Made by a program: the position numbers and the translations under genes. A stretch of 64,000 bases of DNA from a virus, in the IMG/VR virus record IMGVR_UViG_3300045922_000122, positions 21,622 to 85,621 of that record. The stretch is one strand, 5' to 3'. The notes beneath the pieces were generated by a model. It was not told where the DNA came from, made no database searches, and saw only the letters and a list, made by a program, of their open reading frames with translations. Numbering within the stretch: position 1 is the first letter of the stretch; each line of letters begins with the position of its first letter. Below, in pieces: positions 3,372-32,287 of this stretch.

Positions 3372-3393
3372 ATAAATTATTATTTGATGGTTG

Positions 3394-3409: not shown

Positions 3410-3417
3410 GAAAGATT

Positions 3418-3744: not shown

Positions 3745-3771
3745 ATCTTTAAAATTTAAACAAATAATAAT

Positions 3772-4269: not shown

Positions 4270-4277
4270 TATTTAAT

Positions 4278-4746: not shown

Positions 4747-4761
4747 AATTAAAATCATAAA

Positions 4762-4995: not shown

Positions 4996-5064
4996 TAAAA
5001 ATTATAATAAAAGTAGAAATAATTAAAATTATAATTTAAACTAAACCTTTAAAACAATAAAACT

Positions 5065-8585: not shown

Positions 8586-8635
8586 AATATTGGAATGTAG
8601 AGGGGCTTAACTTCCCTCTATTACTTCCAGTATTC
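8586..8635. terminator. Long hairpin between convergent gene blocks
   Basis: Inverted repeat in two steps. TAGAGGG (8598-8604) pairs with CCCTCTA (8614-8620) around a 9-base loop; outside a small internal loop AATATTGGAA (8586-8595) pairs with TTCCAGTATT (8625-8634) with one G-U pair. It begins at the stop of the plus-strand gene and covers the stop codon of the minus-strand 1665-aa gene. It fits a bidirectional terminator; no long T tract is present, so factor-independent action is not certain. Confidence 0.7.
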
Positions 8636-13618: not shown

Positions 13619-13621
13619 ATT

Positions 13622-14017
13622 TTAATAGCATTTATCTAACATTTCTTTTGTTTTATCTACACCATGTACAGCAGCAAATATTCTAATAGCAGCTTCAGCT
13701 TCTTCTATTGTATTAACATTAAATGCTTTTAATGTTATTTCTTTAACAATGGGCGAAGATAATAATTTTTGTTTAAAATTACTAATTAAATTTTCAATAT
13801 TATTTTTATCAAATTGACTGGTTTCTGCTTTAGTAATATTATTATTTTTAACAAATTCTCTAAACCCTTCTATATCTTTTCTACCTGTTTGATTTACATA
13901 ATCAGTAAATGTTTGTATAGCTTGTTGTTTTTGTTCAGGTGTTATAGTATTAACACTTTTATATAATTCTTCTAAAGAATTATATCTTACTCCTCTATAT
14001 GTTGGTTTGCAGCTCAT
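13622..14017 (-). CDS. Small protein sharing a segment with the giant polyprotein (131 aa)
   Basis: Contains KDIEGFREFVKNNNI around residues 48-62, almost identical to QDIEGFREFVKNDNI near the C-terminus of the 5323-aa protein. The underlying DNA is also similar (near 13845-13885 and 16675-16715). The start CKPTYRGVRYNSLEELY is typical of a small folded N-terminal motif. ATG overlaps the previous stop (4 bases, ATGA). It probably accompanies the large virion proteins; function unknown. Confidence 0.7.
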   Translation of the reverse strand: MSCKPTYRGVRYNSLEELYKSVNTITPEQKQQAIQTFTDYVNQTGRKDIEGFREFVKNNNITKAETSQFDKNNIENLISNFKQKLLSSPIVKEITLKAFNVNTIEEAEAAIRIFAAVHGVDKTKEMLDKCY

Positions 14018-16314
14018 TGTTTTTCTGTTTTATTATTTTGTTGATTTAAAAGACCTATACCAATAGCAGGAGGAATTATACCAAAAGCTTTTATTTCTCC
14101 TTTACCTTCTTTAAACTTTTTAGGTATATCAAATTCATACCAAGTATTACCTTTACTATCTGTAACTTTTTTAGGTTCTACGCCAAATAATTTTTTAATA
14201 ATCTTAGGTTGTTCTGCATATTTTTTAAGAATAGTTTGATGTTCAGGAGAATAATTTACTGAAGTTTCTTTTTTTCTATATCCTTGCACTTTAGCAGCAG
14301 TTTCAGGAGTAGGCAATCTTACTTTATTTATATCGCCTCTTTTACCTGCATAATCTACTAACTCTTGTAAATATCTTTTCTGATGATTTTTATCTAATAG
14401 TTGTTTTTGAGTAAAGTTTTCTATTTCTGCTTTTTTCATTAAATTAAATTCTTTTTGTTTTTTAGCCTCATTAAAAGCTCCTAACTTTAAAAGTTCTTTT
14501 TCTTGATTTTCCATATTCATTAAAGCTTTTAATTCAAAATCTTTATCAAAAGATTTTGGCATAATTCTATGAGTACCTTGAAAAGCATCAGATTGTATTT
14601 GAGTTACTGTTAATACATCAGGAGTTTCCTCATCTCTTAAAAAATGAATATGACCTAATGTTTCATCTGGATTACCATGAGCATTTGAACCTCTACCAAA
14701 TTTATTTTTATTTCCTAATATAAGAGTTTTGTTTTCTAATGGTAAAGATTTTGTATAATTTATAGCTGCCTCTTTATTTGGAAAATTTAAACCAAATATT
14801 CCTTCTATTTCATATTTACCCGAATTTTTATGAAAATATATTCTACTAGGGTCTTCAATAGCTTGTAAAATTTCTTTTTTATTACTAGGATATCCTATGT
14901 TCTCTAAACCATAATCACTCCTATAGTCAACAAGTCGTCTTTCTAAAGGAATAAGGTTTTCTTGTATTAATTTTCTAAAATCATTAAAATCCATTTTTTT
15001 AGGAATGTTTTCTCCTAACCATTGTTTAACTAAAGCTACTTTTTCAGCACCTCCTGATTCTTTACCTATAATTGATAAAGCTTGTTCTATGTTTATTAAT
15101 CCTGTTTTAGGTTCTACTATTTTACTAATAGGACCATCAGACATTGTAGATTTTAAATGTAGTCCAGGTAATTCTTCTAATTGCCAAGTTTTATCTTGTT
15201 TTTCAGTAGTATTATATTTTTGTATTAAAGCTTTGTTATCTAATATTTCTTTATCAAGTTTAGAAATAGCTTCTTCTTTACTTAATCCTTTTACAGCATC
15301 ATAGGAATCATCTAACTTTTTAAATTTACCTGTTTTGTATAATTTATTCCATATACTTAATCCAACAAGATTTAAAGGGTCTGTTACAATATCTTCTACA
15401 ATACCAGCTTTATTCTTCTTACCTTTAATAGCATCACTAAAAGAATAATCATCTTTATAAGCAGCTTGTACCATTTTAGAAGGTATAGTTAATGGATTTA
15501 GTATTTTAGAAGCATCACCTAATTTACTCATTATAGGATTATCAGCATACTCTTTTAACATTTCTTGCTTTTCTCTATCACTATAATCAGGAGAATTTAA
15601 AATGTTTTTAATTGTTTGTGATGGATTTTGTTCTATTAATGAAGTCAAACCTCTTTTAGTATCTGCCCATAAAGAAGATTGATATTTAGGATTTCTTTTA
15701 ACGAATTCTTCTTCTTTACTCGTCATTGAATTTAACCATTCAGCTCTACTTAAATTTCCTTGCGGTTTATTTTTAATTAATTGTTCAGAAACATAATCTA
15801 ATGATTTTTTTTCATATTCTTCATCAAGTCTTTTTGGATAATTTGTTTCTGTATTACCAAGACTTTTTGCAAAAGGTGTTAAATATTTTTGTATATAATC
15901 ATATTTAGGATTTGTTTTTTCATATTCTCTTTTATACTTTAACCAATCAGGAGCTTTATCTTCTACTACAAGTTCTTTTAAAGGAGTAGCTATATAAGTA
16001 TTAGTATTTTTATCATAAGTCATTAATTTACCTGAATTATATAAATCTTTATATTCTTTAGAAGATATATCATACTCTTTAATAATACCTTTTTCATCTT
16101 TAACTTTAATTTTCTTACTAGGAATAAGACTACCATCTTCTGCATAATCAGACATTACTGGTAATGTATCTACAAAAGCATCTACACAACTCCAGCACTT
16201 ATCTTTAATCATACTTTCTACTTTTGCTCTATCTTTTTTAGGTATAATTACAATATCTCCGTATGAATTACGAATTGCTAATTCACCGCCTTCTACTTCT
16301 ATTTGTTTTTTCAT
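14014..16314 (-). CDS. Polyvalent-type virion protein (766 aa)
   Basis: N-terminus has EVEGGELAIRNSYGDIVI, a motif repeated in crAss-like internal proteins. The C-terminal 250 residues hold GHIHFLRDE, then TQIQSDAFQG, then LPTPETAAKVQGYR and LKKLFGV-type wording (IIKKLFGVEPKKV, GNTWYEFDIPKKF), which I recognise from large polyvalent phage proteins that are injected with DNA. The biochemical role of that domain is not established. The very end has a hydrophobic stretch (IIPPAIGIGLL). One base separates it from the giant gene, so the two are co-transcribed and probably act together. Confidence 0.75.
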   Translation of the reverse strand: MKKQIEVEGGELAIRNSYGDIVIIPKKDRAKVESMIKDKCWSCVDAFVDTLPVMSDYAEDGSLIPSKKIKVKDEKGIIKEYDISSKEYKDLYNSGKLMTYDKNTNTYIATPLKELVVEDKAPDWLKYKREYEKTNPKYDYIQKYLTPFAKSLGNTETNYPKRLDEEYEKKSLDYVSEQLIKNKPQGNLSRAEWLNSMTSKEEEFVKRNPKYQSSLWADTKRGLTSLIEQNPSQTIKNILNSPDYSDREKQEMLKEYADNPIMSKLGDASKILNPLTIPSKMVQAAYKDDYSFSDAIKGKKNKAGIVEDIVTDPLNLVGLSIWNKLYKTGKFKKLDDSYDAVKGLSKEEAISKLDKEILDNKALIQKYNTTEKQDKTWQLEELPGLHLKSTMSDGPISKIVEPKTGLINIEQALSIIGKESGGAEKVALVKQWLGENIPKKMDFNDFRKLIQENLIPLERRLVDYRSDYGLENIGYPSNKKEILQAIEDPSRIYFHKNSGKYEIEGIFGLNFPNKEAAINYTKSLPLENKTLILGNKNKFGRGSNAHGNPDETLGHIHFLRDEETPDVLTVTQIQSDAFQGTHRIMPKSFDKDFELKALMNMENQEKELLKLGAFNEAKKQKEFNLMKKAEIENFTQKQLLDKNHQKRYLQELVDYAGKRGDINKVRLPTPETAAKVQGYRKKETSVNYSPEHQTILKKYAEQPKIIKKLFGVEPKKVTDSKGNTWYEFDIPKKFKEGKGEIKAFGIIPPAIGIGLLNQQNNKTEKQ

Positions 16315-16315
16315 A

Positions 16316-19300
16316 TTATTTTAAAGTTTTTGAATTAATAACTAAACCATTTTTTGCTTTAATTTGACCTTGTTTACCAGTCATTTTAATAGTTCCATTA
16401 CTTATTTCTATATCAATACCTCCTCTTTCATGGGAAGCTCCTTTAAATTCTTTAACAATTTCCCATTTACCGCCTTTTGTAAATTTATTAAAACTCATTC
16501 CATCTTTAGCACAAGGATTACCTTCTTCATCTGTATATGTTATTTCAGATTCATCAATAACATCAAACCCTAAAGTTTTATATATTTCATTAGCTAATTG
16601 AAGATTTTTATCAAATAATTCTTCTACCTGTTGATTAATATTTTCATATTGATTATTTTCTACTATATTATCATTTTTAACAAACTCTCTAAAACCTTCT
16701 ATATCTTGTTTACTTCCTAGTATATGAACTTGTTCTGGTCTAAATACTACAAAAGATTCATCATTAGTCCCTTCTCCTGTATTAATATATACAAATCCAT
16801 CAAATTTTGAATTTAATAATTTATTTTCAACTATTTTTTTATCATTAATATCAGGAATTTCTTTTCCATTAAAAGTAGATTTATTAGGGTAATTATTTTT
16901 TACTTTAAACCAATCATCACCTTTTGGAACATCATAATCTTGATTTATTCCAGTTTCAAAACCAGCATTTTGTATATCTTTTATAAACCTTGCAGGAGAT
17001 TCATCTCCAGAATCTCTTTTAAATAGAGGATTTTTAATGTTTATAATACTCAAATACAATGATTTACCTTTTTCTTCAGCATATAATTTTCTAGTTAAAG
17101 CAGCTTTTTTAGAACCAAAATGAATAAAATTATTATTTTTTGGTATATATCCATAATGATAAACAATATCTTTAACTTTACTATCAGGAAATATAGTATC
17201 TAAATAAGCAGAATATTGTTCTAGAGTTCCAATAGAGGCTAATTCACGATATTGATTAAATAATTCTTTTACTCCTGTTTTAATCTGATTTTCTCTTTGA
17301 TTAAAAATACCACTAGCTCTATTTTGAAGTTCTCTTAATCTTTCAGAACTAAAACCAACTTCACCTGTTTCTAAATCAACTCTTTTTAGAAAAGCATCTG
17401 TAAGTATTTGTGTTAGTTCTTGTTTTTGTAGTTTAGATAATGAATTAAATTTATCCATTATCCATTTTACAAATTTAGTCCACCAATTCCAAGCTTCACC
17501 TCTTTGTTTAACAGCTTGTTCGCCAATAGACTGAACAAGAGCTTCTTCACTTCCCCACTTTCTAATAGCTTCTTGAACTATTGGTGTGTTTCTAAACCAA
17601 GCTATATAATGGTGAGCGTATTCGTGTGGTAATGTATCTATTCTTTGGTTTAAAGCATCTATAAGAACAGTACCGGCTTTAATATTAGCTTGACCTATTA
17701 TTCTATTAAGTTCATCTTTTTGAAATTGTATATTTCCAATTTTTTCAAAATATTTATATTTTCTAATAGCTTCATTAGAAATTACTTGATATAAATAAGA
17801 AGCATCAAAATTTGTAGATTTTAAAAAGTTTAAAACAGTATTATATTTATTAAATTGAGAATGAGCTTTATATCTATTTAAGATTAAATCTGAAAAAGTA
17901 TCTACTTTACTTATAGTATCTAATTTATTTATAGATAGATTTTTTACAATATTGTCTTTATTACTCCAATATTGTTTTAATAAAAATGCTGCTTGTTCAT
18001 TTGATTTATATTTAGATAAAATATTATAAGGTAAGTATGACCTTAAAGTATATTGTTGATTTTTATCAAACTTTTTAATAGCATTTTCTATACCTTCAAG
18101 TTTTACTTTTTTAGTAAAAGAAGCAAATAATCTTGAAAGCGAATAAACTTTATTTACATATTCATTTATTGATTTTAATTTTTGTAAATACTTCTCTCTT
18201 TTATCTAATAAATCATTTATAAAATCTTCAGATTTTAAATACTTATCTAAAGATTGTAAAGATTCTTCAAAATTATTGTAAGATATACGATTTTCAAAAC
18301 TATCACCTATTACTGACTTAACTAAAGAACGTAAACTAAAAGTACTTGTTTTTTTAGGTAGATATTCCCTAGTTTTTAATTTTAACTTGTTTTCATAATA
18401 TTTAATAACTTGTTTTTCTTCTTTTGAAGATAAAGGCTTTTCTTTAACTTCTTTTTTTCTGTTTTCTATTTCTTTTATATATTCTTCTATATAATTTTTT
18501 TCTTCATATTCAGAATTTTTTATTTCATTTTCTAAAAGATTAATATATTCTTTTGGATTACTAATATTTTGTTCAATGTATTCTCTAAACGGAGGCGTTG
18601 CATCCGCACCTGCCCATCCTTGAGCTTCTAATATACGATATATAAATCTACCTGCTTCTTTTGGACTTAGATTATAGTTAGCTTGAATATCATCTAATGT
18701 TAAAGGAATAAGTCTTGGTTTATATGTTTCTTTAACTTTTACATGTGAACCTAATCCAAAAAATTCATTAGATATAAACTCATGTTGAGGCATATCATAA
18801 ATATAAATAGCATTATTTATAGCTACAGCAGAAACATAATGAGTTATATCAAAATTTCCAAGAGGTGATTTTACAAAAACACTTAATTGGTCTCCATTAG
18901 GAGATGAAGGGTAAGGATTTAAACCTATTTTTTTTAAATATTCTGTAGATTCTTTTGCTGTAAAATTACAAATACCGTTAGGACATAAAGTATCTTGGTT
19001 TTCAAATAATTCAAATTTATTTATTTCATCTGGTATTGTTTGATTGAAAACATTTTTATCTGTTTCCCATGTAGGATTATTAGTAATATTTAATCCTAGT
19101 TCAGGATAAAGAGATTGTATTTTTTCTTGTAATTCTTTTACTAAGTTTAAATCTAAAGGATAATAATTATTATTACTAATTTGATTAAATGTTTGATTAT
19201 TACTTTTATTTATATATAAACCAACGCCGTTAAACGGTTGATATTCTAATCCTTTATCTAATAAATATTTTCTAATAGCACCTTCTCCAACAGAATTATG

Positions 19301-22300
19301 ATTAGAATTTGCATCATTTTCGTTATCAGCGATAAAAAATTTAACTCCTTGAGATAATGCTAAATCAATAGCTTTTTTAGTTTTTTCTAAATTTTCAGCT
19401 TGATTAGGTCTACCTTTACCATTTACAGAAATCATTATAGTTTCACCAGCTTTAAATGAAGTTCTAGTACCACCAAAAGCATTGGCATATTTATATGTAC
19501 TTGTACCTGGTTCTCCATAAGCTATAATACCATCTGCATAATCAGCTTTTATTTGGTCTTTTGGAAATTTAGCATTAATATTTATAGGATTTGATTTTTT
19601 AATTGGTAAATTAGTAAATTGTTTATTAGAATAAATCTCAGAAGCTGTTTGTCTTTGTCTATTGGGTTCACTTAACAAATTTTGATTATTACCTACTTCA
19701 TTAATTGTATTAGTAGAATTAATACTACCAGAATTTAAATTATTAATATCAGTAGTCCATATTTTACCTTTTATATTAGCTATAACAGGTAAAGGTATTT
19801 CTTGATAAATATAAAATCTACCAGAGCCATCTAATCCAATTCTTTCATAAAGTCTGTAAATATCATTATTGTCTGTTGTTTTTATAAAAGGAGCTGCTTT
19901 ATAATCATTTACTCTTAATATTAATTTAGAAGCTTTACTATAACTAACATAAGGAACTATATCTGAATTTCTCCAGTTGTTTATGTAAAAATTTCTTCTG
20001 AATATATTAAAAGTATTAATATGTGCATTAATATCTATTTTATCTAATATAGTTTTAACTACCTTTCTAGAAATTACTGCTGGAAGTATTTGATTTATAC
20101 TAAATTGCGTAAAGTTATAACCAGATTGAAGCATAGAAAACTTAATTAAATCTGTTGCTAAGCTTAAATCTTTACCTCCTCTATTAAACATATCTTCTAT
20201 AGCAGAAGCTATTTCTTGCATAACATAAGCATTAAAGTTTCTATTAGATAGTCTTATATTATCTATACCATCTCCATCTGGATTTATCATAGGTATTAAA
20301 TAATCAAGTCTACTATCTTTAACTTCTTCTTGATATTTTTTAAGTCTTTTAGGTAAACTTTCATCTCCTTTAAATAAAGATTGCCAATTAGCAAATTTTT
20401 CTCCAGATGTTAATATAGATATTTTAAAATCATTCTTTAAAAGTTTAGATACTTTATTTCTATTTTTAGATTTAAAAACTCTTTCTAAAAGTTCTTCTCT
20501 AAAAGAATCTAGACTATAAACAACTTCATCAAATTGTTCTGTAAAAATAAGGTCTTTAAATGTAAATAAAGAAGCATTATATACTTTTTTAAACGAATCT
20601 AAAAATGTAAATTGTAAATATCTATCTAGATTTTTAAAATTACCACTAGTTAAAATTTCTCTATTTGTTTTTAATAAATCTTTTACAGCATCTGTACTTC
20701 CTAACCCTCTAGTATCAAAAGAAAATGCACTTCGCATTTGACTTATTTTAAAAGCAACTTTTTTATAGGTTAAGAAGTCTTCTAATATATTTTGTTGTAC
20801 TTGTCTATTAAATTGTTGTAATTGCTCTAATGTAAGTTTATTGTATTTATAATCACCATATTTAGTTTTTAATTGTTCTAGTTCATCTTCTTTAGTAGAA
20901 ATCATAGTAGATATTGATTTATGTCTACTTATTATTTCTACATATTCTCTTATTATAGGTTGGCTTATAAAGTATAATGCTGTTTGAGAAGGTAATCCTG
21001 CTGAAACTAAGAATAGAAAAACATCTGCTGTTTCAGCATTTAGATTAAACCTTTCCATAACTTCTGGGTTCTTTACAACGTCTACTGCTAAAGAAACACC
21101 TTGTCCTAATACATTAGATATTTTTTCATTAGTAGGATTACCATTTTCATCTACTGTATATATATTACCTAGACTGTAATATCCATTTGAGTCTTTTTCT
21201 ATTCCTTTAAAATTTATAGAAAAGTTTAAAACTTCATCATCAAGTTTAAGATTACTATTTATTCTAATATCAGCTATTTGAAATAAAGGATGACTTTTGT
21301 TAGCTAAAGCAAATATACCAACTAATCCTTTACCATACCAAAACATATTTCTAAGAGTAGAAATTGTTTTGAAATTAAGTAAATCTGTAAAGCTATAATT
21401 ATTAATAACTCTATCAGGATAAAACTCTTGTAATTTCTTTTCTATAACTAAAGATAAATCTTTATATTTACTAATACTGTTAGGTTCAAGTTTATCTTTA
21501 GGACTTCTACTTTCTAATAAAGCTATTGTATATTCCAGTATTTTATTTTGCAAAGCTTTTTCTCTAAGTTCTGGATTATTTAGATTTTCTTCATTAGGTT
21601 CTACATAAATATATTCATATTTTTTAAGATTTTTATTTTCTTCATTTTTTCGTCTATTAAAATTAATTAAAGCTAATTTAAGATTAGATATAGCTGTTTT
21701 AGTATCTTCACTATATGATTTATATGCTTTAGATTCTTTAAGTTTACCTAATTCACCTTTATCACTTTTTAAACTATATGAATTTAAAGCTTGTAATAAT
21801 TCTGTAAAGGTATAATTACTAGATTTTAATAAATTTTTTATAGCAATTCTATCATCTTCATCTGTATAATTAAAATACTCATAACTATTTTCAAAATCTT
21901 CTAAATCTATTTTATCTACTTTTTTTCTTATAAAATTAGGAAAATAAATATTAATTTTATCAAAGTCAAAGTCAGAACCTACTTTTTTAGTAATACCGCT
22001 AGGAACAATACAAGTATTACCGTAAGACTTAGGTAAAAATCCTTTAACAACTATACTTTCTAAAGAGTTAAGTTGCTCTGTAGGAATACGAAAGCCATAC
22101 ATTTTTAAATTATTAGGGTCTATCTTATTTATAGTTTGACCTTCAGAAAGAATGTTACCAAAATAATAAGGTAAATATATTTCCATAGTTTTACCATTTT
22201 CATAAAACTTTAATCCATTAGATTTATATTTACCATTAATTCTTTCTCTTACTTTTAATTCTGTTCCTGTATCTGGAAATTGAACTAAAGATTTACCAAA

Positions 22301-25300
22301 TCTTTTTTGATTAACTGCTTTATTTTCAAATATAGAATATAGAATTGGTTCTAATTTGTTATAATTAACTAATAAATCTAAATATACAGGTTTTCCTTTT
22401 TCAAGACCTTCTAATTCCAATATAAGAGCTTCTATTTGATTATCAGGTATTTCTCCTCTTGAATTAATTTCTTCTATTAATAATTTCTTTAAAGCTTCTC
22501 CACCATCAGAAAATACAGCTCTACCATTTTCATATTTTAAATTTAATTCTTGTTTTACTTTATCTAAATAATAATCTGTTAAATCAGATTGTGCTTTAAA
22601 TAAATCTCTTACAGCTTCTTCTATAGTTAGAACTTTATTTTTAATAGTAATAGTACCTTTTTTAAATGTTCCTTTGTCTGCTAAATCTGTAGCAATGATA
22701 GCAGCTTCTTGCGTACCTCTAGAAGTTTCTTTTGCATCTTTAGGAGAATTTTCTACTTGTATTCCTATACTTTCTATTGGTATTTCTGTAACAAGTTCAT
22801 TGTCTATATCTGCTATTTCTCCAGATTCATTATAAAGAGGTTGACCTTGATATTTACCTTTTTCTCCTTTTTTTAATTTAAACCCTATTTTATTTCCACT
22901 TCTAAATACACCAATATCAATTTGGTTATTCCTCATTTTTTCCAATAGAGAGTAAAGAGCAGGGAAAGCTTCTGAATCCTCTTTAATAGCTTTTATTAAA
23001 GTAGGACTTAATCTAAGTAAAGCAAATTTAACATAAAAAGGTTTTAATTCTTCTTCACTAGAATTTCCATATATAACAGGTTTAATACTAGGTAATATAG
23101 AATTAGCTTCTTCTCCTTTACTTTCTAATTCCCAAGCTTTATTCATTTCTTCAGACCAACTATCTGACCTGAATAATAAATCTCTATATAAATCATCTAA
23201 TATAATACCGAAAGAATCAGTTTCATCTATTTCATCGTAACCTTTTACACCTAAAATACTTAATTCTTCTTTTACTGAAACTATGTCTTCAAATGTAACT
23301 ACTTTTACTTTTAATCTGTCTTCTCCTGTTTTACCATCTACTCTAGGCATATAAGTATCCATATATTCATTTATAACAGGAGTATTAATAACTTGTTTAG
23401 TAGTAGCAACAGCACCTGCATACCTTTTAAACATATCTATAAAACTAGCTGTTAAATCTGGTATATTACCTTTATATTTAGTAATATAATAAGCAGGATT
23501 TCCAAAGAGTACTTTTGTTTGTTCTATTGCACTTATAATATAATTAGTAGTAAAAGCAGTAACTACTTTTTCTATTTGTTCTTCTGTTAATTCTTTTTCT
23601 TTACCTTCTTTTATATTTAATACCTCTCTTAAAATTTCTTTACTTACATTAATTTTATTAGATTTAATTATTCCATTATTTTTAAATAAGTTATAATTAG
23701 ATGTAATTTGAAATTCTACATAATCTTTTATCTTATTTTTTACAACTTCTTCACTATCAATTATATTTATAGTATTACCATTTTTATCTCTAATATTTTT
23801 AAATATAACTAAATCGTTTAAAAATTGTTCTCCATTTACTATAATTTTATCTTTATTTTTCTTTTGTTTTATAATTTCTAATTCAGTTAAATAATATTTA
23901 TATAACTGGTCTACAGTTTGCTTTACCATATCAAACTTACTATAACCAGATATATTTATAAAAAAGTTATCTAAACTAAATGTTCTAAAACTTTTCTTAT
24001 CTCCTGTAATTAAAAAGCTAAAGTTTTTAGATAGTATATTATTAAGTTCTACAATTAGAAAATCTTTAAAACTTAATTGTGAAACATCTTGACCTGTTTC
24101 AGCAGCTTTACTCATACCATTAGTAATACCTACTCTTATGGCATTTTTCTTTTTTGAAATTCTTTCTAATATTATACTATCTCTAGCGTATATATTAGTA
24201 TTTTTATTTAAAAAGTTAGGTATTATCCCTGAAGAAAGTTTATATACTAATCTAGATATGTAATTATGTAGAGTAATAGAATAAATCATTTCTCCTTTTG
24301 AAGTAACAGCTACGTTTTCTACAACATCTTCATTAAAAGAAGATTCTAATTCTACTAATCTCTTTAATCTACTTAAAGAAGTATTAGTATAGAAATCTTT
24401 ACTTCCTAATTTATCTAAAGTTATCTTTTCTGATTTTAAATCGTTTATTAATAGAGTTATACTTTTTAAATCTTCTATTCCATTTTCAGAATTTAAATAA
24501 TTTTTAACAGCTTCTTTATTTTCAAATTTTATACCTAGTTTTTCTAGAAAATCTAATTGTTGAGTTGTAGTAGAAGCTAAATATTCTTTTCCTTTTTTAG
24601 TTAATCTTATTGTTCCATTTTCTCTATAAACTAAATCATTATTTATAGTTAATAGATTATTTAACCACTTTCTTAAAGTAATATCTTGAGTTTTAGTGGT
24701 ATTTGTATTAACTCTATTTACAGTACCGTCTCTATTTACTATTAAATTTTCAAAGTTTTCTTTATGTTTAGAAAAAGAATTGTAAAAAGAAACTATAAAT
24801 TGTGCACTATAATAATCTCCATTTTTAGCTCTATCTTCTAATAAATTTAATAGATTATAAAGTTTTCTAAAGCCTGTATCTTTACTATTTAAAAGCCTAC
24901 CTTTAATTTCTTCATAACTAATAGAATTAGCTAATTTATTCATTAGCTTATTTATAAATTTATCATATTCATAAGTATCAGCAAAAGAAGCTAAAACTAA
25001 TCTTAAAGGAGTTTTTATTTTAGATTTTTGATTTATTAAATACGCTTCTTTATAACTTTCATTAGATACTTCTTTACTAATAACCTCATCTTTACCTAAA
25101 GATAAATCTGATTCTTCTTCTGAAATGTCATCTTCTTCTATATCTTCCTCACTTGGTTGTGTATAACCTAAAGCTTTTATAAAATCTTTATGAATAACTA
25201 CTGCTTGTTGTAATATTTCTTTCTTTCTTTCATAAGGAAGTTCTTCAAATTTTTGTGTTAACCCATCTTCTTCTAACATTTCTTTAAATGAAGCGTTATA

Positions 25301-28300
25301 TATAGGTCTTATTATTTCCTTAAAATCATCAGAATTAAAAAGATAAAGAATTTTTATATCATTAGCTAATAATTTAGATATTACTTTATTATGTATTCTT
25401 TTAGCTACAGCAGCATTATTAATATTTCTAACAGAATCTAATTTAGAAAACATTAAATTTTCTCTTACTTTTTTAGCATTTTTAAATTCTCCTCTTTCTA
25501 TTCTTGCATAAAAATCTTCTATTTTTTTATTAGTATTTAAAGAAAAAGCAGCTTTTATTAAATTTAATATTTTTCTAAATAGACTTTCTTGTTTTTTAGA
25601 CTTAGCTTTTTTGTTCAGCATATAAATAGCAAACCCTTCAGCTAGTCCTTCTTCTGCTTCTTTATCAGTAGCATCAGGTTTATTATTTATTAATCTCCAT
25701 TCATCCCATAATTCTTTTTGTTCTTCTTTAGATATTAATAAATTTGATACATAGTGAAACGCTTCGTGGTATTCTGTTCCTTGTTCTCCCATCGTAGATA
25801 GAAGTATTTTACCATTACTTAAAATTCTACCACTAGCTATACCTTCAATAAGATTATCTACTCTTTCATAAGATTCTCTATCTGTTATATCTATACCTAA
25901 AGTTTCAACCAACCAATTTTCAGCTTCTTCTATATTTATAGTATCTAAAATACCTGTATAAATTCTAAAAGCAGAATTGATAGCATCATCAATAGCTTTA
26001 TCAATATCAGAAAAATTATTAGAATTAGTTTTAGGCTTAGCTTCAGGATTTATATTAGGGTCATTTAAATCAACTTTAGGAGCTTCTCCAAAAAACCCTT
26101 CTAAACTTGCTTCATTTTTTATATTAGATTCTTGAGCTTTTTTCTCTAAATTTTGTTCAAATTCTTTAGTAATTTTAAAACTATATTTAGGTTTTCCTAA
26201 AATAGGTAAAATATTATCTTCTATTTCTTTAATAATTTGTTCTACAGATTTGGTTTCCATATTATTTCCACCAAAATCTAAATTTATCTTATTTTCAAAT
26301 TCATCTACTTCAGGAATCCTTTCTTTAGTTTCTATTTTAAATTTTCTATTTTTAACATCTACTATAACATTAAAATTATTATCTTCTCTAATTGCAGTTA
26401 TTTTAGTAACTTTAGATTTATTATCTTCTGTTTGAGGAATAGTATTATTTATGGTTTCTTTACTTTCTCCCGATAAGGTAGAATCAGGAGAAAGTGGATT
26501 AGGTTCAAATGTAGCATACCCTTGTTGAAATCTTCTAACTTTATCGTTTATAATATCATCTTCAGTAGCATCTTGCTTAATCCTTAAAAATGTAGTCAAT
26601 GGAATATCTTCTATTTGCCTAGTAGTACCATTAGGCATTAATGGAGAAGTTAAATAATGTTTATAACTATCCCATTCTGTTTCTTCAAAACTATAACCAT
26701 TCCATAAAACTGATTTATACTTAGGTAAGTTTTCTTCTTTATTTTTATTATTAAGTAGAGCTAAAATTCTATTATTTACATTTAGTACTTTTTTCTGTAA
26801 AGTTTCAATTATTTCATCTTTATTTTCTTCTAAAGTATCTAAAGTTATAACTTTATTTTGTAATACTAAAACATCTTCTTTTATATCAAAAGGAATTACA
26901 GAATTTTCAGATAAATAAACTATATTTTCTATATAAGTAATTAAATTTTTATAACTTAAATTTAAACTTTCAGTTGTCTTTGCCTCTTTTGCTTTTTCAC
27001 TAGCTGTATTAGGTAAAGTACTTCTATAGTTTTGTAAGTAAGCTTTAACTAATTGATATACAGTTTCTGCTTCTTGTCTATTTATTTTTCTAGTAATAGC
27101 AGGTATCCAAGTATTTCCAAGTTTAAATAACACTCTACCAGCAGGATATACTATTCTTCTTTCGCCAGCAGTTATAGTTCTATTTGTTTTACCTTTTTCA
27201 GATTTCTCTCCTATAGATACTAATATATTTAACTTATCAGCTATATCACTTTCTTTTTCTACAATAGTACCTACTACAGAATTTTTAGTTTTATTACTTA
27301 TAGGTTTACCAGGATTAAAAGATGTTATATTAAAAAAGAAGTTCTTATTACTATTCTTTTTAATAATATCTCTAATTTGTTTATGTACTTCTAGAGCATT
27401 ACTTAATATTTCAGCTTTAGTTTCTTTGCTAAGGTCTTTGTTAAAAAAGCTATATCTAGGAGAATTAGTATCTTTAAAATTTAAAGATAAATCTCTAAGT
27501 TTAGCATATACAACACCTCCATAAGCTATAACTGGTTTGTTTTCAGAATCTACTAAAACAAGTCTTATATCATCTTCATTATGATTTACTCCTTCTATTT
27601 TAGGGTCATTATAAACAGAATTAGGCTTTCCTAAACCATAAACTTCATCGTTTATAGTAACAGACATGAATTTATAGTTTTTAGGGTCTTCATTTATTCC
27701 TATATTCTCTAACCATCTAAAAAATCTACGTTCTTCTATAACTGGATTAGAACTTTCACCAGGTTTACCATAATCACCTCTTTCACTATCTCTACCTGTA
27801 GAAACAGCCCAACCGTATAAATCTACATAAGTAGCTTGATATAAGTATGAATCATTTTCTAAATCCTCGTCTAATTCATTATCTAAAGTCTCTATAACTC
27901 CTTTATTGGCAACACTAAATTTCTTTTGTACTTCTTTTTCAGTTTTAGCTTTTTCTTCTACTAAATTTTTATATTCTTTTTTCAAAGAATCTGCTTGTAC
28001 TTTAAAGCTAGATAAACTAGACAATTTCTTTAAAAGAGAGTTATAATAACCTAACTTACTTTTTTCTTCAAGTATAGCAACTTTTCTTCCTTCTAAAAAG
28101 TTTATCTTACCAAAATAATCATAACTTAATTCAAATAAAGCTTCTATATCTTTTTCTAAATCTTTATCTAATATTTTATTACTTGTAAAATAAGCATGAA
28201 GTCCATCTATAGTTTTTTCAGGTAATAGTCCTTCAGGTATTCTTTTAATAATATCAGATAATAAAGAGTTAAATCCTTTCTTTAAATCAGTAGTTTGACT

Positions 28301-31300
28301 ATTTATAGATTCTAGTTCAATATTTAATTTATCTATAATAGTTTTAATGTCTTCTTCATATTTACTTAAATCTTCTTTTACTTTGTCAAACTTATTTAAA
28401 GTTTCTTCATATAATTTTATTTTATCTTTTATTTTCTTTAAGTATTCAGGATTATCTACATTTTTACCAGTAGGAGCTGCTTTTTTAAATTCATTATATG
28501 AAGCTTTAACTTCTTCTAATTCTTTATTTAAAACTTGTAATGCTTCATAAACATTAGAATTTTCTTGTTGAATTAAATTAAGTCTTTCTTGTTTAATTGA
28601 TTTTAAATTTTCTAATTGTCTTAAAATTTCAAGTCCTCTTTGAAGTAGTCTGTAAGTTTTATCTTTAGCTTGTTTAGAATTAAATCTATTAGAAGAAGTT
28701 CTTTCAGTATATTCTTTATTAACCTCTTCAAATTCTTTTTGTAAAGTATCTATATTTTCATTAATTGTAGATAGATTTATTTCTTTTAAATTATTAACAG
28801 CATCTTGTTGTTCTGCAATTAAAGATTCTAAAGAAATTATTCTAGCTTGATACTGTCTATTTATTCTATTTATTTCATCTTGACGTTGTAAATATTCTGA
28901 ATTTACATAACTTATAGTATAACGTACTGTTATTTTTTCAGATTTATTTTTATCTGTAGTTTTTTCTGTTTCTTGTGTTTCTTCTGCTTCTTCTAATTCT
29001 TCTGGTGAAGTTGTATAATTTCCTTCTTCTAATCTTTTTTTATATTCTTCTCTATCTTTTTTACTGTAAAAAGATTCTTCGTAAAAAGCTACACCTGTTT
29101 TTTCTAAATTTTCTCTTACTTGTTTTACAAAATTAGCAGCAGATTTTGTTTTTATTCTTTTAAAAGTAGTACCATCTTTTTTTCTATAAGTAAGTTCTAC
29201 AAATATCCAATTGCCCTTACTATCTTTTACCTGTTCATATAAAGTATTAGGGTCTCCTTCTTTGTAAAAAAGTCTTTTTACAGGACCTTTATCAGTACTA
29301 AGAACAATAGCACCAGATAAAAATTTAGAAGATAATTCAGAACTAGCTCTCTTTACTATTGGTGTTTTTAATTCTTTAGCTTCCTTAGTAAGAGCTTCTA
29401 CTTCTGGAAAATAAGTCTTTTCTAAAACATCATCTCCATCAACATAAGTATTTAAATTTTTATATAACTGAGCTACTTCACTATTTACAGCCTTTTTTTC
29501 AGCATCTTTTTCTTTTTTCTTTTCTAGTAAACTTAAAGCTTTTTTCTCTCTTCTGTACTCTTCTAGTTCTTCATTAGTAACCATTTTATAATAAGCTTCT
29601 ACTAATTTAGTTCTAAAATCAGAGAGAGTTAATAAGTCTAATCCTTTTTCTGCTTCTTTTTTACCATTTTCTTTATCTTTTTCTATTAATGCTAAATCTT
29701 CTAGAAAAGCATTTCTACTATCTTTATCTAACATTACTCTAGAAAAATCTTGTAAATCAACAGCACTTCTCCAATCTCTTTCTTGTTCAAATTCAGATTG
29801 TTTTTCTAGTAATAAATCTCCGTACTTATCAATACTTTCTTTTAAAGCATCTCTTAAATCTTCTAAATTAGTATATCTTTTACCTTTAGTAAAAGATATT
29901 AAATCTAATAAATCATTTCCTTCTTTTTGTAGTTCTTCATCTATAAATTCATTATTGCTAAGTTTGTCTAAAACTCTTTTTAGTAAGTTTTCGTATTCAG
30001 CTTTAGCTTTAATTTCTTTTCTAAAATTATATCTAGAGCTTGTTTTTCCTTTAGTAGCTATTTGTTGTAATTCTCTTAATAATTTGTTACCTCTTTCTAA
30101 AACATCTTCTGTTTGTACAACGTTTAAGAATAATGACTTTCTAGTATCTTCTGAATAATTAGAAAATCTATAATTTATACTTTGATATAATTCTTCAAAT
30201 TTATCTATTCTTTCAGATATTTTCTTTAATCTATTTCTCATTTTGCTAACTAGAGCTTCATCACTCAAGTCGTCAAAAGGAGATTTAGTAACTTCAGTTT
30301 CTTTACCGTTAATATTTTCAGTAACAGTATAAGAAAGCATTTTTCTTAATTCAGAAGCAGCTTTTTCTATACCTATTTTAGGTTCTTTTTGTAATTCTTC
30401 TCCTAAAGATAATTTATTTTTAATTTCATTATATCTATTTATTAAATTAGCTATAACTCCATCTTTTTTTATATTAGATAAGTTTCTAGGGCTTTCATCC
30501 AAATTTTCTACATTTTCAGGTAGGTCGCTAAAATCTAAAGATTCTAAGATTTGTATACTCTTTTCTATAAATTCTAATTCTTCTTTATATTTATTAATAG
30601 TTTCAGCACTAGAACTACCTTCTAATATAGAATTTAAATCATTTATTTTTTCTTTTAAAACATCTAATTGACCTATATCAGAAAAAGCAGCTACCATATT
30701 AGCTAGTTGTACTTTTTCTTGAGTTCTTGCTACTGCTTCAAATCCTTTAGCGTATGCCTCATTTTTTGATTTTTGTATTGCAGCATCACTTACCATGTAA
30801 TCGAATAAACTTCTAAATTTATCATTAGTAGCATATTCGTTAGCTTTAGCAATAGCAGCATTTGTAGCTTTTAAGCTTTCATTATATTCTCTTATTCCAT
30901 TAGCAATACCACCACCAATTCCAATTCTTAAATTACCTTTATCATTTCTTTTAATATAAGGCAATCCTAATCCGCCAAATATAAAACCACCGAAAGCATT
31001 TTCCCAACCTTCAGCACTTCCATAAGCTTCTTCAAGTCCTTTAAATATAGAACCTATTATAGTTTTAGTATTTTCTAAAGCCTCTTTATCTGTTCTTAAA
31101 TCAAAGTAATCTTTAGTTCCCTCTGCTGTTGCAAACTGTAATTGTTCTTGTGTCATTTCAGCAAATGGATTTTTACCGCCAGATATTATATATTTAGCTA
31201 TCTTTTCAGCTTTTGACATTTGCTTAGTAGCAAAAGAAAGCCCTTCTTTAGTTGTAGATTTTGTTATTATATCTGTAAGAACTTTGGAATTTAGTTTTAC

Positions 31301-32287
31301 TCCACCAGTTAATAAATTTTTAAACTGAACATAATCAAAAAGACTTAATGCAGCAACATTAATTCCAAATATAGTATTTTGTAAATATTTCTTTTCTTCT
31401 TCTAATCTTTTTAATTCAAATTCAGGTATATTTTCACCATATCTATATTTTAAATTTTCTAATTGTTCTTGTTCCCATTCTCTACCATTAGATAAAGCTT
31501 CTATTCTAGCTTCACCCATTTTTCCTAAAATACTACTACCTATTTGATTTATAGCTGTCCTAGTTTTTATTTTACCAGCCATTTGTATAATATCATCTGC
31601 TATTTGTTCTACTCTCATAGGATTAGCTTCCATAGCAGTTAACATTCTTTTAGCGGTAGTTTTTAAAGTAGTGCTGCCTTGACCTTCTATCTTAGCTAAA
31701 GCATTTACAACTTTACTATATTTTCCTAATTTATTTAATGATAATAAAGCCCCTAAAATATTACCAGTTAAAACTGTTGCTCCTAAAGCACCTACTAAAA
31801 ATCCAGCATTTTCAAATTGATGTAGCCAGAAATTAGCAGTACTAAGTTTTTCATAAAAAGGTTTATTTTTATCTGCTTCAGTATCATAAAGTATATTATT
31901 AGTTCTAACTTCTTCTAACCATTCATCTAAACTAGAAGAAAAAGGATTATCTACAAAATCATTAAATTCTATCTCACCATCCTTACCACCTTTTGCCAAA
32001 TTTGCAATACCAGCTACAGTTCCTACAAAAGTATCTAAAAATGTACTACCTGCTATAGCTCCAAATACTTTTCCGCTTCTCCATAATTTATTAGAAAACG
32101 GTTGTAATAAAGCTGCTTCTTCATAAAGATTAGCAGTAGGCATTATATTATTAACGCCAAAATTATACAAATCTTCTTGAAGCTTTTTATTTACATTATA
32201 GTAAATAGGAGCACCTGATTCTTTAGTAATATCGTATTTAACTGTATCTTTTTTTGGAGTAATGTCTGAACTTCTAATGATTTCCAT
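16316..32287 (-). CDS. Giant virion polyprotein with RNA polymerase and protease motifs (5323 aa)
   Basis: Probably packaged in the virion and ejected to transcribe early genes. Seen in order: hydrophobic segments at 74-98 and 161-183; long coiled-coil stretches to about 1400; a zincin helix HEAFH at 2174-2178; the RNA polymerase metal motif DFDFD at 3439-3443 (GSDFDFDKINIYF), as in the crAss-like phage phi14:2 gp66; an AFGGTRTSF/ISVNGKGRPNQ domain near 4250-4370; a Cys/His pair (Cys4440, His4483, Asp4498) like a thiol peptidase; a second zincin helix HEYAHH at 4888-4893; an ADP-ribosyltransferase-like domain from VYHYGY (His5044) to RPEQVHIL; and a SHERGGI end motif. It is far longer than the roughly 2200-aa gp66, so it looks like a fusion. 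Self-cleavage is an inference. Confidence 0.85.
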   Translation of the reverse strand: MEIIRSSDITPKKDTVKYDITKESGAPIYYNVNKKLQEDLYNFGVNNIMPTANLYEEAALLQPFSNKLWRSGKVFGAIAGSTFLDTFVGTVAGIANLAKGGKDGEIEFNDFVDNPFSSSLDEWLEEVRTNNILYDTEADKNKPFYEKLSTANFWLHQFENAGFLVGALGATVLTGNILGALLSLNKLGKYSKVVNALAKIEGQGSTTLKTTAKRMLTAMEANPMRVEQIADDIIQMAGKIKTRTAINQIGSSILGKMGEARIEALSNGREWEQEQLENLKYRYGENIPEFELKRLEEEKKYLQNTIFGINVAALSLFDYVQFKNLLTGGVKLNSKVLTDIITKSTTKEGLSFATKQMSKAEKIAKYIISGGKNPFAEMTQEQLQFATAEGTKDYFDLRTDKEALENTKTIIGSIFKGLEEAYGSAEGWENAFGGFIFGGLGLPYIKRNDKGNLRIGIGGGIANGIREYNESLKATNAAIAKANEYATNDKFRSLFDYMVSDAAIQKSKNEAYAKGFEAVARTQEKVQLANMVAAFSDIGQLDVLKEKINDLNSILEGSSSAETINKYKEELEFIEKSIQILESLDFSDLPENVENLDESPRNLSNIKKDGVIANLINRYNEIKNKLSLGEELQKEPKIGIEKAASELRKMLSYTVTENINGKETEVTKSPFDDLSDEALVSKMRNRLKKISERIDKFEELYQSINYRFSNYSEDTRKSLFLNVVQTEDVLERGNKLLRELQQIATKGKTSSRYNFRKEIKAKAEYENLLKRVLDKLSNNEFIDEELQKEGNDLLDLISFTKGKRYTNLEDLRDALKESIDKYGDLLLEKQSEFEQERDWRSAVDLQDFSRVMLDKDSRNAFLEDLALIEKDKENGKKEAEKGLDLLTLSDFRTKLVEAYYKMVTNEELEEYRREKKALSLLEKKKEKDAEKKAVNSEVAQLYKNLNTYVDGDDVLEKTYFPEVEALTKEAKELKTPIVKRASSELSSKFLSGAIVLSTDKGPVKRLFYKEGDPNTLYEQVKDSKGNWIFVELTYRKKDGTTFKRIKTKSAANFVKQVRENLEKTGVAFYEESFYSKKDREEYKKRLEEGNYTTSPEELEEAEETQETEKTTDKNKSEKITVRYTISYVNSEYLQRQDEINRINRQYQARIISLESLIAEQQDAVNNLKEINLSTINENIDTLQKEFEEVNKEYTERTSSNRFNSKQAKDKTYRLLQRGLEILRQLENLKSIKQERLNLIQQENSNVYEALQVLNKELEEVKASYNEFKKAAPTGKNVDNPEYLKKIKDKIKLYEETLNKFDKVKEDLSKYEEDIKTIIDKLNIELESINSQTTDLKKGFNSLLSDIIKRIPEGLLPEKTIDGLHAYFTSNKILDKDLEKDIEALFELSYDYFGKINFLEGRKVAILEEKSKLGYYNSLLKKLSSLSSFKVQADSLKKEYKNLVEEKAKTEKEVQKKFSVANKGVIETLDNELDEDLENDSYLYQATYVDLYGWAVSTGRDSERGDYGKPGESSNPVIEERRFFRWLENIGINEDPKNYKFMSVTINDEVYGLGKPNSVYNDPKIEGVNHNEDDIRLVLVDSENKPVIAYGGVVYAKLRDLSLNFKDTNSPRYSFFNKDLSKETKAEILSNALEVHKQIRDIIKKNSNKNFFFNITSFNPGKPISNKTKNSVVGTIVEKESDIADKLNILVSIGEKSEKGKTNRTITAGERRIVYPAGRVLFKLGNTWIPAITRKINRQEAETVYQLVKAYLQNYRSTLPNTASEKAKEAKTTESLNLSYKNLITYIENIVYLSENSVIPFDIKEDVLVLQNKVITLDTLEENKDEIIETLQKKVLNVNNRILALLNNKNKEENLPKYKSVLWNGYSFEETEWDSYKHYLTSPLMPNGTTRQIEDIPLTTFLRIKQDATEDDIINDKVRRFQQGYATFEPNPLSPDSTLSGESKETINNTIPQTEDNKSKVTKITAIREDNNFNVIVDVKNRKFKIETKERIPEVDEFENKINLDFGGNNMETKSVEQIIKEIEDNILPILGKPKYSFKITKEFEQNLEKKAQESNIKNEASLEGFFGEAPKVDLNDPNINPEAKPKTNSNNFSDIDKAIDDAINSAFRIYTGILDTINIEEAENWLVETLGIDITDRESYERVDNLIEGIASGRILSNGKILLSTMGEQGTEYHEAFHYVSNLLISKEEQKELWDEWRLINNKPDATDKEAEEGLAEGFAIYMLNKKAKSKKQESLFRKILNLIKAAFSLNTNKKIEDFYARIERGEFKNAKKVRENLMFSKLDSVRNINNAAVAKRIHNKVISKLLANDIKILYLFNSDDFKEIIRPIYNASFKEMLEEDGLTQKFEELPYERKKEILQQAVVIHKDFIKALGYTQPSEEDIEEDDISEEESDLSLGKDEVISKEVSNESYKEAYLINQKSKIKTPLRLVLASFADTYEYDKFINKLMNKLANSISYEEIKGRLLNSKDTGFRKLYNLLNLLEDRAKNGDYYSAQFIVSFYNSFSKHKENFENLIVNRDGTVNRVNTNTTKTQDITLRKWLNNLLTINNDLVYRENGTIRLTKKGKEYLASTTTQQLDFLEKLGIKFENKEAVKNYLNSENGIEDLKSITLLINDLKSEKITLDKLGSKDFYTNTSLSRLKRLVELESSFNEDVVENVAVTSKGEMIYSITLHNYISRLVYKLSSGIIPNFLNKNTNIYARDSIILERISKKKNAIRVGITNGMSKAAETGQDVSQLSFKDFLIVELNNILSKNFSFLITGDKKSFRTFSLDNFFINISGYSKFDMVKQTVDQLYKYYLTELEIIKQKKNKDKIIVNGEQFLNDLVIFKNIRDKNGNTINIIDSEEVVKNKIKDYVEFQITSNYNLFKNNGIIKSNKINVSKEILREVLNIKEGKEKELTEEQIEKVVTAFTTNYIISAIEQTKVLFGNPAYYITKYKGNIPDLTASFIDMFKRYAGAVATTKQVINTPVINEYMDTYMPRVDGKTGEDRLKVKVVTFEDIVSVKEELSILGVKGYDEIDETDSFGIILDDLYRDLLFRSDSWSEEMNKAWELESKGEEANSILPSIKPVIYGNSSEEELKPFYVKFALLRLSPTLIKAIKEDSEAFPALYSLLEKMRNNQIDIGVFRSGNKIGFKLKKGEKGKYQGQPLYNESGEIADIDNELVTEIPIESIGIQVENSPKDAKETSRGTQEAAIIATDLADKGTFKKGTITIKNKVLTIEEAVRDLFKAQSDLTDYYLDKVKQELNLKYENGRAVFSDGGEALKKLLIEEINSRGEIPDNQIEALILELEGLEKGKPVYLDLLVNYNKLEPILYSIFENKAVNQKRFGKSLVQFPDTGTELKVRERINGKYKSNGLKFYENGKTMEIYLPYYFGNILSEGQTINKIDPNNLKMYGFRIPTEQLNSLESIVVKGFLPKSYGNTCIVPSGITKKVGSDFDFDKINIYFPNFIRKKVDKIDLEDFENSYEYFNYTDEDDRIAIKNLLKSSNYTFTELLQALNSYSLKSDKGELGKLKESKAYKSYSEDTKTAISNLKLALINFNRRKNEENKNLKKYEYIYVEPNEENLNNPELREKALQNKILEYTIALLESRSPKDKLEPNSISKYKDLSLVIEKKLQEFYPDRVINNYSFTDLLNFKTISTLRNMFWYGKGLVGIFALANKSHPLFQIADIRINSNLKLDDEVLNFSINFKGIEKDSNGYYSLGNIYTVDENGNPTNEKISNVLGQGVSLAVDVVKNPEVMERFNLNAETADVFLFLVSAGLPSQTALYFISQPIIREYVEIISRHKSISTMISTKEDELEQLKTKYGDYKYNKLTLEQLQQFNRQVQQNILEDFLTYKKVAFKISQMRSAFSFDTRGLGSTDAVKDLLKTNREILTSGNFKNLDRYLQFTFLDSFKKVYNASLFTFKDLIFTEQFDEVVYSLDSFREELLERVFKSKNRNKVSKLLKNDFKISILTSGEKFANWQSLFKGDESLPKRLKKYQEEVKDSRLDYLIPMINPDGDGIDNIRLSNRNFNAYVMQEIASAIEDMFNRGGKDLSLATDLIKFSMLQSGYNFTQFSINQILPAVISRKVVKTILDKIDINAHINTFNIFRRNFYINNWRNSDIVPYVSYSKASKLILRVNDYKAAPFIKTTDNNDIYRLYERIGLDGSGRFYIYQEIPLPVIANIKGKIWTTDINNLNSGSINSTNTINEVGNNQNLLSEPNRQRQTASEIYSNKQFTNLPIKKSNPININAKFPKDQIKADYADGIIAYGEPGTSTYKYANAFGGTRTSFKAGETIMISVNGKGRPNQAENLEKTKKAIDLALSQGVKFFIADNENDANSNHNSVGEGAIRKYLLDKGLEYQPFNGVGLYINKSNNQTFNQISNNNYYPLDLNLVKELQEKIQSLYPELGLNITNNPTWETDKNVFNQTIPDEINKFELFENQDTLCPNGICNFTAKESTEYLKKIGLNPYPSSPNGDQLSVFVKSPLGNFDITHYVSAVAINNAIYIYDMPQHEFISNEFFGLGSHVKVKETYKPRLIPLTLDDIQANYNLSPKEAGRFIYRILEAQGWAGADATPPFREYIEQNISNPKEYINLLENEIKNSEYEEKNYIEEYIKEIENRKKEVKEKPLSSKEEKQVIKYYENKLKLKTREYLPKKTSTFSLRSLVKSVIGDSFENRISYNNFEESLQSLDKYLKSEDFINDLLDKREKYLQKLKSINEYVNKVYSLSRLFASFTKKVKLEGIENAIKKFDKNQQYTLRSYLPYNILSKYKSNEQAAFLLKQYWSNKDNIVKNLSINKLDTISKVDTFSDLILNRYKAHSQFNKYNTVLNFLKSTNFDASYLYQVISNEAIRKYKYFEKIGNIQFQKDELNRIIGQANIKAGTVLIDALNQRIDTLPHEYAHHYIAWFRNTPIVQEAIRKWGSEEALVQSIGEQAVKQRGEAWNWWTKFVKWIMDKFNSLSKLQKQELTQILTDAFLKRVDLETGEVGFSSERLRELQNRASGIFNQRENQIKTGVKELFNQYRELASIGTLEQYSAYLDTIFPDSKVKDIVYHYGYIPKNNNFIHFGSKKAALTRKLYAEEKGKSLYLSIINIKNPLFKRDSGDESPARFIKDIQNAGFETGINQDYDVPKGDDWFKVKNNYPNKSTFNGKEIPDINDKKIVENKLLNSKFDGFVYINTGEGTNDESFVVFRPEQVHILGSKQDIEGFREFVKNDNIVENNQYENINQQVEELFDKNLQLANEIYKTLGFDVIDESEITYTDEEGNPCAKDGMSFNKFTKGGKWEIVKEFKGASHERGGIDIEISNGTIKMTGKQGQIKAKNGLVINSKTLK

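What the first reader, a model, noticed from the sequence alone, without database searches (positions are those of the whole stretch)
16316..32287. A single 5323-residue protein joins an RNA polymerase motif with two zincin motifs, a thiol-peptidase-like pattern and an ART-like end
The frame is uninterrupted over 16 kb. DFDFD at 3439-3443 matches the metal-binding motif of the crAss phage virion RNA polymerase (phi14:2 gp66). HEAFH (2174), HEYAHH (4888), Cys4440/His4483/Asp4498 and VYHYGY...RPEQVHIL (5041 to about 5190) are seen in the same protein. That is much longer than gp66 and looks like a fusion of polymerase with a polyvalent-protein toolkit. The proteases might cut the polyprotein after ejection, freeing the polymerase.
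Basis: partly seen in the sequence, partly recalled or inferred. Interest (0 to 1): 0.85.

Follow-up and report, generated by a model that had tools for sequence, protein, structure and literature searches.

The report
crAss-phage polymerase with mobile add-on domains
[quoted passage not shown] that much is known, but it also carries a tail of protease-like and ADP-ribosyltransferase-like domains that turn up at different places in the giant proteins of related phages, once with both zinc-protease sites broken.

Summary
In detail: one uninterrupted 5323-aa ORF (minus strand, 32287 to 16316) carries every quoted motif. The phage is crAss-like. Residues 2882-4090 are a two-barrel virion RNA polymerase; the profile matches phi14:2 gp66 (PDB 6VR4) at E=9e-116. 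Most of the extra length is not toolkit: residues 1-700 match crAss001 gp47, and zincin 1 (2088-2291) is an old crAss domain found in split and fused genes. Fused giants of 4400-5000 aa already exist in named crAss-like phages. Only the last ~1200 aa is an added toolkit (unidentified alpha/beta domain, papain-like triad, zincin 2, ART-like end), absent from the nearest polymerase relatives. Zincin 2 recurs in 31 viral contigs; in those read in detail it lies after, before or inside the polymerase core, or in a neighbouring protein. In one relative it sits inside the polymerase and both zincins have lost a metal-binding histidine. Both zincins here keep a candidate third ligand, so activity is plausible. 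That proteases free the polymerase is untested and the comparative evidence is mixed. Silent sites argue against recent transfer. It is a new variant of a known kind: vRNAP-fused polyvalent giants as in N4 and P23-45.

The parts
16316..32287 (-). whole giant cargo protein, 5323 aa
30188..32287 (-). aa 1-700: N-terminal region homologous to crAss001 gp47 (virion protein); hydrophobic stretch aa 164-182
   Evidence: (E 6.5e-23)
25415..26026 (-). aa 2088-2291: zincin 1 (HEAFH 2174-2178, candidate third ligand E2213), at the hinge between the gp47-like and polymerase parts; widespread in crAss-like phages
25754..25768 (-). HEAFH motif of zincin 1
20018..23644 (-). aa 2882-4090: two-barrel virion RNA polymerase core, homologous to phi14:2 gp66 (6VR4)
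21959..21973 (-). DFDFD catalytic metal-binding motif (aa 3439-3443)
21557..21931 (-). aa 3453-3577: variable insertion site just after DFDFD; about 20-25 aa in L001/L002, about 760 aa with toolkit in G010, also occupied in G006
19208..19528 (-). aa 4254-4360: unidentified alpha/beta domain at the start of the C-terminal toolkit (no family found)
   Evidence: low-confidence model
18758..19156 (-). aa 4378-4510: short shared linker (4378-4416) plus papain-like domain, C4440/H4483/D4498 invariant in the two members known
17297..17842 (-). aa 4816-4997: zincin 2 module (HEYAH 4888-4892; GSEEALVQ third-ligand helix), at varying positions in crAss-like giant proteins
17612..17626 (-). HEYAH motif of zincin 2
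16661..17224 (-). aa 5022-5209: ART-like domain with conserved start (FPDSKVKDIVYH) and end (EQVHILGSKQDIEGF) and a divergent middle
8621..13618 (-). 1665-aa RNA-polymerase-associated protein homologous to crAss001 gp49 (next conserved gene of the transcription block)
13622..16314 (-). two interposed ORFs (766 aa and 131 aa) between the giant and the gp49-like gene; not seen at this place in L001, cr118 or cr50

Best explanation
The gene encodes a packaged cargo protein of a crAss-like phage. Two virion proteins that other crAss phages encode separately, the gp47-like partner with its hinge zincin and the gp66/gp50-like two-barrel virion RNA polymerase, are fused into one chain, and a C-terminal module of polyvalent-protein type (unidentified alpha/beta domain, papain-like peptidase, zincin 2, ART-like domain) has been added. 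Likely course: the protein is packed in the capsid, threaded partly unfolded through the tail, and refolds inside the cell, where the core transcribes early phage genes. The toolkit enzymes act in the same first minutes, either cutting the chain into working parts or, slightly more likely, modifying host proteins. Shown here: polymerase homology, the fusion, conserved catalytic residues, and the varying position of the zincin 2 module. Inferred from relatives: packaging and ejection. Not shown: any peptidase or ART activity or target.
For: RNAP core profile to PDB 6VR4, E 8.8e-116 over about 1030 positions; the weak AlphaFold model still ranks 6VR4 first, Foldseek E 2.9e-12. tblastn hits in 124 phage records, mostly crAss-like, many annotated RNA polymerase. 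Colinear with crAss001 gp47 then gp50, and phi14:2 gp67 then gp66. Structural genes are crAss-like: MCP, portal, TerL. crAss001 gp47, gp49 and gp50 are virion cargo by mass spectrometry (PMC10172136). The toolkit is absent from the nearest RNAP relatives L001 and L002 (core 45.5% and 41.7% identical), while aa 4384-4972 is 66% identical to G005, whose core is only 23% identical. Zincin 2 lies C-terminal to the core in G005, G007, G008; inside the core in G010 and G006; upstream of it in G011 and G012; in a different ORF in G001, G003, G004, G014. 31 viral contigs carry it.
Against: AlphaFold models of both regions are low confidence (mean pLDDT 48.5 and 47.6), so no fold is shown directly for the toolkit; Foldseek of the toolkit gives nothing at E<=0.001. 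The ART assignment rests on sub-threshold Pfam hits of relatives. The papain-like assignment rests on a triad conserved in two sequences. Codon-level identity is close to that expected from codon usage, so transfers are not recent, and protein constraint explains part of the high module identity.
Confidence: 0.8

Rival explanations
1. Self-processing polyprotein: zincin 1 at the hinge and zincin 2 or the papain-like domain cut the ejected chain and free the polymerase.
For: Zincin 1 lies at the boundary between the gp47-like and polymerase parts, and gene splits fall on either side of it: after it in crAss001 gp47, before it in G005/G007/G008. Catalytic residues are conserved in nearly all zincin 1 copies. 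Iyer 2017 argues MPTases autoprocess polyvalent proteins, with P1 DdrB processing as the example.
Against: Zincin 1 is kept where the polymerase is already a separate gene (crAss001). Fpv20 is fused with no zincin 1 detected; G010 is fused with both zincins missing a histidine while its polymerase core stays recognisable in full. N4 vRNAP is packaged unprocessed. Zincin 2 sits inside the core or in other proteins elsewhere.
Confidence: 0.3
2. Host-directed effectors: zincin 2, the papain-like and ART domains modify host defence or transcription proteins and only ride with the polymerase because it is ejected first.
For: Positions relative to the polymerase vary, the accessory end is absent in the closest relatives, the ART middle is divergent, and ART-PolyVal is the best family hit; zincin 2 also occurs in proteins without the polymerase.
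Against: No target or activity is known; zincin 2 itself is strongly conserved in sequence, unlike typical fast-changing effectors.
Confidence: 0.45
3. Ordinary fused crAss virion RNA polymerase in which the C-terminal end is only spacer or structural sequence with decayed domains.
For: Fused giants are common in crAss-like phages, and two zincins have decayed in G010.
Against: In the window itself all catalytic residues are intact, and zincin 2 is 50-90% identical across phages, including ones whose polymerase cores share only about 17-28% identity with the window.
Confidence: 0.15
4. Assembly or frame artefact joining separate genes.
For: The length is extreme.
Against: Uninterrupted frame; colinear single ORFs in independent records (L001 3725 aa, L002 3853 aa, G010 5392 aa); fused giants in named genomes.
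Confidence: 0.02

Closest known systems
phi14:2 gp66 virion RNA polymerase (PDB 6VR4) and upstream gp67
   Same: Same two-barrel polymerase core with D-F-D-x-D; same gene order, partner upstream of the polymerase.
   Different: Separate genes in phi14:2 (1797 and 2180 aa), no zincin 1 detected in gp67 and no C-terminal toolkit; here one 5323-aa chain.
crAss001 gp47/gp50/gp49 cargo proteins
   Same: gp47 has the same N-terminal region and zincin 1; gp50 the polymerase; gp49 matches the 1665-aa neighbour; all are virion cargo by mass spectrometry.
   Different: Three separate genes, gp47 on the opposite strand from gp49 and gp50; no zincin 2, papain-like or ART end found.
Fused crAss-like giants: cr118_1 (4946 aa), cr50_1 (4774 aa), cr10_1 (4460 aa), Flavobacterium phage Fpv20 gp33 (4419 aa)
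   Same: Polymerase and a long N-terminal part in one polypeptide; zincin 1 in the first three.
   Different: None has zincin 2 by profile; Fpv20 lacks a detectable zincin 1 and has a C-terminal HEVIH that the zincin 2 profile does not match.
N4-type vRNAP polyvalent proteins (Iyer 2017, PMC5512222)
   Same: Virion RNA polymerase fused to a zincin, sometimes to an ART; proposed autoprocessing.
   Different: N4 polymerase is the unrelated single-subunit T7-like type; the paper does not contain the words crAss or papain.
P23-45 gp96 (5002 aa, PMC10770324)
   Same: Giant virion protein joining a two-barrel RNAP with a metallopeptidase domain.
   Different: Tail tape measure protein of a long-tailed phage; polymerase at the N-terminus; no ART or papain-like domain mentioned in the passages read.

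Membership tests
crAss-like two-barrel virion RNA polymerase | Homology to phi14:2 gp66 across the core | tested here: met
   Profile vs 6VR4 E 8.8e-116; tblastn; Foldseek rank 1 despite a weak model
crAss-like two-barrel virion RNA polymerase | DxDxD catalytic motif in aligned position | tested here: met
   DFDFD 3439-3443 aligned with DFDID of gp66
crAss-like two-barrel virion RNA polymerase | Two double-psi beta-barrels in one chain | tested here: inconclusive
   Implied by homology to 6VR4; own model pLDDT 48.5
crAss-like two-barrel virion RNA polymerase | Packaged in virion, active on DNA template | not testable with these tools
   Known for relatives phi14:2 and crAss001
Crassvirales-like phage | crAss MCP, portal and TerL | tested here: met
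   phrog_11589, phrog_6547, phrog_6681; TerL 34% to Flavobacterium phages such as Fpv20
Zincin metallopeptidase (both domains) | HExxH plus downstream Glu ligand in a conserved helix | tested here: met
   Alignments; among the relatives G010 breaks both motifs
Zincin metallopeptidase (both domains) | Metal binding and proteolysis | not testable with these tools
   Needs purified protein
Papain-like cysteine peptidase | Cys-His-Asp triad in alpha-beta order | tested here: inconclusive
   Triad invariant in 2 sequences; low-confidence model places Cys just before a helix and His/Asp on strands
ART-PolyVal (PF18760) | Pfam score above gathering cut-off | tested here: not met
   Window region no hit; three relatives 18.6-19.8 bits against a cut-off of 31.2
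Polyvalent proteins | Several unrelated enzyme domains in one polypeptide | tested here: met
   Domain map, (papain and ART assignments tentative)
Polyvalent proteins | Delivered into the host with the DNA | not testable with these tools
   Inferred from virion cargo status of crAss001 homologues

The most novel reading that the evidence does not exclude
crAss-like virion RNA polymerases act as carriers for exchangeable, enzyme-bearing accessory cassettes. The same zincin 2/papain/ART toolkit is plugged in after the core, before it, into a permissive loop right after the catalytic DxDxD, or into a neighbouring cargo protein, so that phages deliver varied host-modifying enzymes together with the first transcription machine.
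Probability: 0.4. Interest if true: 0.75.

Novelty: new variant of a known kind. Interest (0 to 1): 0.5.

Why it matters
crAss-like phages are the most abundant viruses of the human gut (PMC10172136), and their giant cargo proteins are mostly unexplained. The result separates what is old (polymerase, gp47-like partner, hinge zincin) from what varies (C-terminal toolkit), gives a list of catalytic residues to mutate, and offers natural controls: phages with the same polymerase but split genes, no zincin 1, or two dead zincins. That makes the long-assumed autoprocessing of vRNAP-fused polyvalent proteins directly testable.

Tried and rejected
Recent recombination at near-identical DNA junctions (idea): rejected, because identical-codon counts at conserved residues are near the codon-usage expectation (z 0.1 to 2.1 for the toolkit comparisons); the J2-versus-G015 line in that script was mis-registered and is not used. 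AlphaFold of core and toolkit: both too weak to read folds from. Foldseek of the toolkit: nothing significant. Pfam, PHROGs and NCBIfam scans of the window tiles: no confident family. Viral scans with the ART or papain peptide alone: no relatives, patterns being taken from a single sequence. The alpha/beta domain at 4254-4360 was suspected to be Rossmann/SLOG-like; no support found. Bacterial origin of zincin 2: only 4 MAG contigs in GTDB, their origin not examined. Drobysheva 2021 (phi14:2 RNAP) could not be read.

Full report
Observation. The ORF spans 16316-32287 on the minus strand, 5323 aa, without a stop. All quoted motifs are present at the quoted residues, apart from a shift of one for VYHYGY. 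By composition one expects 0.012 HExxH and 0.002 DFDFD. The record is an 85.6 kb virus contig with crAss-type MCP, portal and large terminase; TerL is 34% identical to Flavobacterium phages such as Fpv20.

Polymerase. tblastn of aa 2401-3800 finds 124 phage records, mostly crAss-like, many annotated RNA polymerase. A ten-row profile of aa 2891-4090 and homologues matches PDB 6VR4, the phi14:2 virion RNA polymerase gp66, at E 8.8e-116 over about 1030 positions. The AlphaFold model is weak (pLDDT 48.5), yet Foldseek ranks 6VR4 first at 2.9e-12. The double-psi barrels are therefore established by homology, not by the model.

Why it is so long. The protein is colinear with crAss001 gp47 (aa 36-556 and 2146-2224) followed by gp50 (3034-3882), and with phi14:2 gp67 (24-200) followed by gp66 (2899-3791); the N-terminal profile hits gp47 at 6.5e-23. 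It is thus a fusion of two known cargo proteins. Giants of 4946, 4774, 4460 and 4419 aa containing the polymerase exist in cr118_1, cr50_1, cr10_1 and Fpv20. [quoted passage not shown] In crAss001 gp47, gp49 and gp50 are virion cargo by mass spectrometry (PMC10172136). The neighbouring 1665-aa protein matches crAss001 gp49 and the 1978-aa protein of L001 (40% identity).

Zincin 1. aa 2088-2291 is conserved with an intact HExxH in 13 distinct records, in crAss001 gp47 as well as in fused giants, with EExLA[ED]xF downstream. The candidate ligand is E2213, with an acidic residue four positions on, as in thermolysin-type zincins (established knowledge). It lies at the hinge between the gp47-like and polymerase parts; gene boundaries fall after it in crAss001 and before it in G005, G007 and G008. 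It was not detected by this profile in Fpv20, phi14:2 gp67 or G006, and in G010 it reads HEAFE.

Toolkit. Past aa ~4090 the nearest polymerase relatives, L001 and L002 (core identity 45.5% and 41.7%), end or diverge. The window continues with an unidentified alpha/beta region (4254-4360), a linker and papain-like triad (4378-4510), a helical region, zincin 2 (4816-4997) and an ART-like end (5022-5209). aa 4384-4972 is 66% identical to G005 by BLAST (68% in the MAFFT alignment), where C4440, H4483 and D4498 are invariant. The ART segments of three relatives have ART-PolyVal as best Pfam hit, below its cut-off.

Mobility of zincin 2. It is found in 31 viral contigs and in 4 metagenome-assembled bacterial contigs. 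Thirteen records besides the window were read in detail. Zincin 2 follows the polymerase core in G005, G007 and G008; lies inside the core in G010 (core 3224-3921, zincin 2 4323-4482, core 4686-5226) and, with weaker support for the second half, in G006; precedes it in G011 and G012; and is in a different ORF in G003, G004 and G014 and in G001, whose ORF runs off the contig; in G002 and G009 the ORF is cut at its 5' end, so its partner is unknown. Core and zincin 2 identities are only loosely linked (Spearman 0.40 over 36 pairs): window to G005 is 23% in the core and 71% in zincin 2; G003 to G007 is 71.5% and 64%. G005 to G007 (41% and 72.5%) suggests zincin 2 evolves more slowly than the core, so identity alone does not prove exchange; position changes and absence from the nearest relatives carry the argument. 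A test of silent sites found codon identity close to expectation, so exchange, if it occurred, is not recent, and the earlier idea of DNA-level junctions was dropped.

Mechanism. Iyer et al. 2017 (PMC5512222) describe polyvalent proteins and N4 vRNAP fused to zincins and ART, and propose autoprocessing. The window is the crAss-type counterpart. For self-release: the hinge position and conserved residues of zincin 1. Against it as a requirement: split genes keeping zincin 1, a fused gene without a detectable one, and G010, where both zincins have lost a histidine (HEAFE, NEYAH) while the polymerase core is recognisable in full. A host-directed role for the toolkit is slightly preferred (inference). 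No activity has been shown for any of these domains.

Limits. The toolkit folds are not shown by any confident model. The number of papain-like sequences is two. Counts refer to the searches run here; the collections may leave out records very near the window, and the key structural paper on phi14:2 was not readable. Relative records are contigs of unknown completeness.

Noticed in passing
L034/L035 (G010), giant ORF of 5392 aa: Toolkit inserted inside the polymerase core right after the DxDxD block; both zincin sites have lost a histidine (HEAFE and NEYAH).
   Followed up: partly
L029 (G006), ORF of at least 6385 aa: A stretch like the papain-module linker starts about 45 aa after DFDFD and zincin 2 follows, before the second half of the core; a second likely insertion inside the polymerase.
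   Followed up: partly
13622-14017 and 14014-16314: Two ORFs (131 and 766 aa) between the giant and the gp49-like gene; the small one repeats the ART-end motif (GRKDIEGFREFV), the larger shares a short stretch at 83% DNA identity with a gene upstream of the polymerase in L001.
   Followed up: no
52632-52710: ARAGORN calls a tRNA-His with anticodon atg, unusual for His, beside the major capsid protein gene.
   Followed up: no
36514-40848, aa 381: HEFNH motif in the 1444-aa protein matching a virion structural family (phrog_15100).
   Followed up: no
L003 (cr108_1) 10903-22493: Polymerase split into two annotated ORFs at the DxDxD motif, about 290 bases apart; an intron or insertion is likely.
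   Followed up: no
L011 (MT835645) around 20001: Zincin 2 relative (46% identity) in a contig with only short standard-code ORFs; possible stop-codon reassignment.
   Followed up: no
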